IMG/VR virus record: IMGVR_UViG_3300036800_000041
Span: 1-64,000 of that record
Strand: one strand, 5' to 3'
Length of the DNA stretch: 64,000 nucleotides
Source: a virus
The notes below the pieces were generated by a model. That model was not told the DNA's origin and searched no databases. It saw only the letters and a program-made list of their open reading frames with translations. Below, one piece after another: positions 24,784 through 25,160 of this stretch (its first letter is position 1; every line of letters starts with the position of its first letter). Position numbers and translations under genes: made by a program.

Positions 24784-24867
24784 GGCGGGAGATACCCGCC
24801 GGATAGGAGGGCATTCTGACCAGCACATATGCGATATTACACATATGTCTAGTGGCACCTGTCACTG
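24784..24867 (+). other. Start-associated hairpin and ribosome site without a proper gene
   Basis: GGCGGGAGATACCCGCC (24784-24800) is followed by GGATAGGAGGG, as before real genes. The expected start position holds no ATG/GTG. A CTG (24816) or ATT (24813) would start an 18-19-codon frame that ends at TAA 24870-24872 region. It is probably a decayed gene, a leader peptide or the start of a non-coding RNA. Confidence 0.45.
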
Positions 24868-24872
24868 GATAA

Positions 24873-25003
24873 GTTCGGCGACCCGAACTTTTAATTTTGG
24901 TCGACCCTAACTTTTGAGTTCGGTGACCCTAAACCATGGTTTCGGGCAGCCGAAACTGTAAGTTCGGGCGACCCTAACATTCAAGATCGGGAAAGACGAA
25001 CAT
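24873..25003. repeat. Degenerate 22-23-bp repeats with inverted-repeat units
   Basis: Five to six units share TTCGG-N-GACCCTAAC-TTT. GACC boxes or their equivalents lie at 24880, 24903, 24925, 24947 and 24970, i.e. 22-23 bp apart (about two helical turns). Two units are perfect 16-bp inverted repeats: GTTCGGCGACCCGAAC (24873-24888) and TTTCGGGCAGCCGAAA (24940-24955). Typical of cooperative protein-binding arrays. Confidence 0.7.
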
Positions 25004-25160
25004 ACATGCGCGGGAATCCTAAAGCATGCTTTTTCCTGACAATTCGACATGCGCGGGAATCCTAAAGCATGCTTTTTCCTGACAATTCGACATGCGCGGG
25101 AATCCTAAAGCATGCTTTTTCCTGACAATTCGACATGCACGGGAATCCTAAAGCATGCTT
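25004..25160. repeat. 43-bp tandem repeat, 3.7 copies, each with AAAGCATGCTTT
   Basis: Units start at 25004, 25047, 25090 and 25133. The first three are identical and the last is truncated with one change. Each holds the 12-bp palindrome AAAGCATGCTTT (25021, 25064 and 25107; AAAGCATGCTTA at 25150). The 43-bp period is about four helical turns, in phase with the upstream 22-bp repeats. There is no spacer variation, so it is not a CRISPR array. Candidate origin, partition site or immunity array. Confidence 0.8.

What the first reader, a model, noticed from the sequence alone, without database searches (positions are those of the whole stretch)
24784..25160. Promoter and ribosome leader feeding into an iteron-like repeat array instead of a gene
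A complete promoter (24746-24773), start-associated hairpin and GGAGGG lead to no proper gene but to five or six 22-23-bp degenerate repeats with 16-bp inverted repeats, then 3.7 copies of a 43-bp repeat each with AAAGCATGCTTT. Both periods are near whole helical turns, so bound protein would line up on one DNA face. Options: replication origin, partition/centromere site, a repressor sponge, or a repeat RNA acting as decoy.
Basis: partly seen in the sequence, partly recalled or inferred. Interest (0 to 1): 0.85.

Follow-up and report, generated by a model that had tools for sequence, protein, structure and literature searches.

The report
Gene-less phage promoter before repeat array
In an uncultured phage related to cluster B mycobacteriophages, one copy of the promoter-and-ribosome-leader cassette that the phage uses to switch on small genes has lost its gene and now reads into hairpins, a likely terminator and a young tandem repeat, most likely a decayed duplicate rather than an origin or centromere.

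Summary
A sigma-70-type promoter (24746-24773), leader hairpin (24784-24800) and GGAGGG (24806-24811) are followed by no gene. Six degenerate 22-23-bp dyad units (24870-25004) and 3.7 copies of a 43-bp unit (25004-25163) follow; none is chance. The window belongs to a 70.7-kb virus record related to Bclasvirinae. The promoter and leader form one copy of a cassette repeated in this genome and in Gordonia phage Evaa, HarveySr and Phlyer. In 34 of 35 strict matches a start codon follows the hairpin within 24 nt; this copy is the exception. Its next 28 nt match the 5' end of the cassette-driven gene at 23367 (13 of 14 nt, 0 of 500 shuffles) with the ATG gone, so I read it as a truncated, decayed duplicate. 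Any transcript should be about 115 nt of consecutive hairpins ending at array unit 1, which scores as terminator-like. The array fills the space before a converging operon and is absent from the sampled relatives. No ParA, ParB, integrase, DnaA-box cluster or skew signal supports partition or origin. At 10.5 bp per turn the units do not share one DNA face. A functional structured RNA or protein-binding array is not excluded.

The parts
24746..24773 (+). Sigma-70-type promoter TTGACA-N16-TATTGT; the stretch CTTAGTCGGTATTGTCG is shared with the promoter of the replication operon (26322-26350)
24782..24812 (+). Leader: hairpin GGCGGGAGATACCCGCC (24784-24800), then GGATAGGAGGGC with SD-like GGAGGG (24806-24811)
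24813..24872 (+). Degenerate gene start: ATT/CTG-initiated 18-19-codon frame (LTSTYAILHICLVAPVTG*); TCTGACCAGCACAT (24815-24828) matches 13/14 nt of the start of the gene at 23367 (-)
24825..24868 (+). Two further RNA hairpins (24825-24848 and 24849-24868)
24871..24900 (+). Intrinsic-terminator-like hairpin AAGTTCGG-CGAC-CCGAACTT followed by TTAATTTT; it is also repeat unit 1
24870..25004 (.). Six degenerate 22-23-bp dyad units (24870, 24893, 24916, 24938, 24960, 24983)
25004..25163 (.). 3.7 near-identical copies of a 43-bp unit, each with palindrome AAAGCATGCTTT (last copy AAAGCATGCTTA)
25182..25520 (-). DUF7423 (PF24198, phrog_982) gene converging on the array
25534..26316 (-). phrog_996 gene, conserved in Bclasvirinae; same converging operon
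24366..24752 (-). Divergent cassette (TTGTCA-N17-TAGGGT, hairpin 24697-24713) and its 105-aa gene (24366-24680); its -35 overlaps the + promoter's -35
22657..23450 (-). Cassette (hairpin 23382-23398) and 237-aa gene whose 5' end matches the degenerate start at 24815-24828

Best explanation
This is an orphan copy of the phage's repeated early-type promoter-and-leader cassette. Shown: the cassette is intact, it lacks a gene, and its first codons resemble the start of the cassette-driven gene at 23367. Inferred: a duplication placed a cassette plus the first few codons of that gene here, in the gap after the phrog_996-DUF7423 operon where relatives keep a small opposite-strand cassette gene, and the start codon and reading frame were then lost. 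Inferred: the promoter still fires and makes an untranslated RNA of about 115 nt (four hairpins) that stops at repeat unit 1, an intrinsic-terminator-like hairpin. Inferred: the dyad repeats behind it arose by tandem expansion of that terminator/palindrome region, an old round (22-23 bp, diverged) and a recent one (43 bp, 99% identical). Their most likely role, if any, is to terminate and insulate two converging transcription units. They are probably not an origin or centromere.
For: Cassette family: 35 strict matches in the window, Evaa, HarveySr and Phlyer, of which 34 are followed by a start codon 12-24 nt after the hairpin; 24784 is the exception. Homology with the 23367 gene start: 13/14 nt, local score reached by 0 of 500 shuffles, the best of seven cassettes. 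Relatives keep a small opposite-strand gene at the end of the phrog_996 operon: HarveySr gp73 44 aa, Phlyer gp74, AnarQue gp73, Sour gp68, each behind a cassette-like leader. RNA 24778-24900 folds into four consecutive hairpins, z = -3.75, 0 of 200 shuffles; without the leader hairpin z = -3.05. Unit 1 scores as terminator-like. The 43-bp copies are 99% alike, and no trace of the 43-bp core exists in IMG/VR or in the compared phages. CCTAAACCATGGTTT (units 3/4) resembles CCTAAAGCATGCTTT in the 43-bp unit (14 of 500 shuffles reach the score). Repeat periods of 22, 23 and 43 bp shift frame, and all six frames hold stops.
Against: No transcript data. The 14-nt homology is short. The terminator scan finds 4 sites against 3.9 expected in the region, so the class of site is not enriched. 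Paired changes that keep dyads perfect (unit 1 versus unit 4; AAACCATGGTTT versus AAAGCATGCTTT) could mean selection on the dyads, although quasi-palindrome correction can do the same without selection. No close relative was found, so conservation of the array cannot be tested.
Confidence: 0.5

Rival explanations
1. Functional structured non-coding RNA: the cassette has been recruited to make a regulatory or decoy RNA (about 115 nt, or longer across the array).
For: Four consecutive hairpins and a terminator-like site directly after an intact early-type promoter. The 411-nt stretch folds far better than shuffles, z = -6.5. Non-coding RNAs are known in mycobacteriophages (PMC7157519).
Against: Tandem palindromes give strong folds on either strand (minus strand z = -5.9). 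No Rfam match above a gathering score. Longest perfect antisense match elsewhere in the window is 11 nt, and one of the three is the homologous gene start. No relatives for covariation.
Confidence: 0.2
2. Replication origin with iteron-like repeats bound by a phage initiator.
For: Dyad repeats in one of the most A+T-rich stretches of the window (47% G+C against 60% overall), 1.2 kb from the replication operon; broad GC-skew minimum nearby.
Against: No DnaA boxes in the array. The skew minimum is at 27.25 kb, near the gene-strand switch, and is flat from 23 to 29 kb. No comparable array in the sampled parts of relatives with the same polymerase and primase-helicase. Repeat phase rotates round the helix at 10.5 bp/turn.
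Confidence: 0.12
3. Operator array or protein sponge: the dyads bind a phage DNA-binding protein and regulate or titrate it.
For: Dyad symmetry kept by paired changes; DNA-binding proteins encoded nearby (for example phrog_597 at 26403-26606).
Against: The dyad (TTCGG..CCGAA) is not the dyad in the cassette promoters (CTACCG..CGGTAG), and the repeat core was not found elsewhere in the window, so no regulated promoter shares it.
Confidence: 0.13
4. Partition site (centromere) of a plasmid-like prophage.
For: Tandem inverted repeats resemble parS arrays in form only.
Against: No ParA (PF13614), ParB (PF02195), tyrosine integrase (PF00589) or serine recombinase (PF00239) in the 70.7-kb record, while control genomes ring.
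Confidence: 0.03

Closest known systems
Extended start-associated sequences (ESAS) and SAS of cluster K mycobacteriophages (PMC3203893; PMC11373665)
   Same: Repeated SigA-like promoter with inverted repeats followed by a conserved element at the translation start of small non-structural genes; a few sites without an obvious gene are reported in cluster K.
   Different: Here the conserved hairpin GGCGGG..CCCGCC lies between promoter and SD; CGGATAGGAGGGC has 3 differences from the 13-bp SAS consensus (limit used there is 2).
Promoter-hairpin cassettes of HarveySr, Phlyer (Bclasvirinae) and Gordonia phage Evaa
   Same: Same promoter form, hairpin and spacing to ATG.
   Different: Every strict match there is followed by a gene; the window copy is not, and an array follows it.
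RNA-based prophage origins of RedRock-type cluster A phages (PMC7157519)
   Same: Non-coding transcribed intergenic region in an actinobacteriophage.
   Different: Those sit beside parABS in extrachromosomal prophages; no ParA/ParB family or integrase was found here, and transcription here is not shown.
Iteron origins of plasmids and P1
   Same: Tandem repeats of the 22-bp class, A+T-rich.
   Different: No iteron-binding initiator identified, no DnaA boxes, degenerate dyads rather than uniform direct repeats.

Membership tests
Bclasvirinae/Evaa promoter-hairpin cassette | TTGACA-16/18-TAnnnT promoter 4-22 nt upstream of GCGGG-N4/6-CCCGC hairpin | tested here: met
Bclasvirinae/Evaa promoter-hairpin cassette | Start codon of a gene 12-24 nt after the hairpin | tested here: not met
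   absent at 24784, present in the other 34 of 35 strict matches; hence described as an orphan copy, not a full member
Cluster K SAS | GGGATAGGAGCCC with at most 2 mismatches, a few nt before a start codon | tested here: not met
   CGGATAGGAGGGC at 24800-24812 differs at 3 of 13 positions and no start codon follows (sequence; rule)
Iteron-type replication origin | Initiator protein that binds the repeats | not testable with these tools
   no initiator identified among the ten proteins scanned; binding cannot be tested
Iteron-type replication origin | DnaA boxes with the repeats | tested here: not met
   no box with up to 1 mismatch between 23,989 and 29,214
parABS partition site | parA and parB in the genome | tested here: not met
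Intrinsic terminator | G+C-containing hairpin directly followed by a T-rich tract | tested here: met
   (24871-24890, 8 pairs, loop 4, tail TTAATTTTGG); activity not tested and the class is not enriched over shuffles
Known Rfam RNA family | Match over gathering score | tested here: not met

The most novel reading that the evidence does not exclude
A phage early-gene cassette has been converted from driving a protein to driving a compact structured RNA, with a dyad-repeat array behind it that acts at DNA or RNA level (terminator block, protein-binding array or origin).
Probability: 0.2. Interest if true: 0.6.

Novelty: new variant of a known kind. Interest (0 to 1): 0.36.

Why it matters
It shows that a repeated promoter-hairpin cassette, similar in role to cluster K ESAS/SAS elements, also occurs in Bclasvirinae and in a Gordonia phage, and that a cassette copy can exist without a gene. 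Such a copy gives a natural test of what the leader hairpin does when nothing is translated, and of whether phages recruit decayed gene cassettes as small RNAs.

Tried and rejected
Partition site: no ParA/ParB. Temperate integrase or resolvase: none. Origin: DnaA boxes, skew and relatives' divergent gaps gave no support. Coding repeats: frames are interrupted and periods are not multiples of three. Known RNA: no Rfam match over threshold. Search for the 43-bp core, the 17-nt hairpin and the 22-bp core elsewhere: no core or hairpin match in IMG/VR; the 22-bp core pattern gave only single, scattered matches in viral and genome contigs without arrays. Closer relatives: polymerase and right-arm protein scans of IMG/VR found none; the primase and phrog_996 scans found only distant ones. 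Single-face helical phasing: not at 10.4-10.6 bp/turn.

Full report
Observation. The 22-23-bp periodicity and the dyads exceed all 500 dinucleotide shuffles.

Setting. The window is bases 1-64000 of a 70,723-bp virus record. Its DNA primase-helicase is 58% identical to that of Quesadilla, and its phrog_996 protein has relatives in 278 phage records, mostly mycobacteriophages, so it is a Bclasvirinae-like phage. The array lies between the + promoter unit and the 3' end of a minus-strand operon (phrog_996 26316-25534, DUF7423 25520-25182), so two transcription units converge on it. A second cassette at 24697-24752 faces the other way.

What the promoter and leader are. The same cassette occurs at 14654+, 22499-, 23382-, 24014-, 24697-, 24784+, 26374+ (weaker hairpin) and 41538+ in the window. 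It is also repeated in Gordonia phage Evaa (7 strict matches), HarveySr (11) and Phlyer (10). In 34 of the 35 strict matches in these four genomes a start codon with an ORF of at least 40 aa follows the hairpin by 12-24 nt. The window's 24784 is the one without. HarveySr and Phlyer are close relatives, so the matches are not all independent; four further strict-pattern hits in Quesadilla, PenguinLover67 and AnarQue look like pattern noise and were set aside. A looser scan also showed a cassette-like site without a start within 45 nt in HarveySr and Phlyer, but in HarveySr it lies about 53 nt before the annotated primase start. In cluster K phages, similar repeated promoter and start elements are described as ESAS and SAS (PMC3203893; PMC11373665).

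Where the gene went. After the hairpin, TCTGACCAGCACAT (24815-24828) matches TCAGACCAGCACAT in the first codons of the cassette-driven gene at 23367 in 13 of 14 nt. The downstream alignment score is reached by 0 of 500 shuffles, and none of the other six cassettes compared comes near it. The ATG is missing and the remaining frame stops after 18 codons at 24870-24872. Relatives have small opposite-strand genes behind a cassette-like leader at the end of the same operon: HarveySr gp73, Phlyer gp74, AnarQue gp73, Sour gp68. The simplest reading is a truncated duplicate that lost its gene; this is an inference from a short match.

What is transcribed. RNA from 24778 to 24900 folds into four consecutive hairpins, z = -3.75. 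Without the leader hairpin z = -3.05. The last hairpin, repeat unit 1, is followed by TTAATTTT and scores as terminator-like, though the scan finds no more terminator-like sites in the region than shuffles do. A short untranslated RNA is therefore expected but not shown.

What the array is. Units 1 and 4 are near-perfect dyads with different arms, and the palindrome AAACCATGGTTT (units 3/4) parallels AAAGCATGCTTT in the 43-bp unit (14 of 500 shuffles reach the score). This suggests one family of palindromes expanded twice, an old diverged round and a recent 43-bp round. The array is A+T-rich (47% G+C), non-coding, and without match in the compared phages or, for the 43-bp core, in IMG/VR. The strongest reading is neutral or weakly functional expansion of a terminator/palindrome region between converging units.

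Alternatives. Partition is excluded as far as ParA and ParB families go. An origin lacks DnaA boxes, a skew signal of its own and conservation in the sampled relatives. A protein sponge lacks any other copy of the dyad in the window. A functional small RNA remains open.

Limits. No expression data, no close relative, short homology for the duplication claim, relatives sampled only in part of their genomes, and possible assembly uncertainty in the 43-bp copy number.

Noticed in passing
window 22499-22560, 23382-23440, 24014-24070: The cassette promoters carry a dyad CTACCG-TTGT-CGGTAG between -35 and -10, a candidate operator; Evaa has CTACCG-GACT-CGGTA at the same place.
   Followed up: partly
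window 25182-26606: DUF7423 sits downstream of phrog_996 on the same strand, whereas in relatives the two are divergent with a 207-453 bp gap; here the divergent gap is only 86 bp.
   Followed up: partly
window 24690-24807: Two cassettes face away from each other with overlapping -35 hexamers, forming a 26-bp inverted repeat with 66 bp between the arms.
   Followed up: partly
window 20911-21830: Stretch without an obvious gene, rich in short repeats and A+T-rich around 21.4-21.5 kb, close to the probable genome end in relatives' gene order.
   Followed up: no
window 14654-14760: A + strand cassette with a 119-codon frame starting 19 nt after its hairpin, amid minus-strand genes.
   Followed up: no
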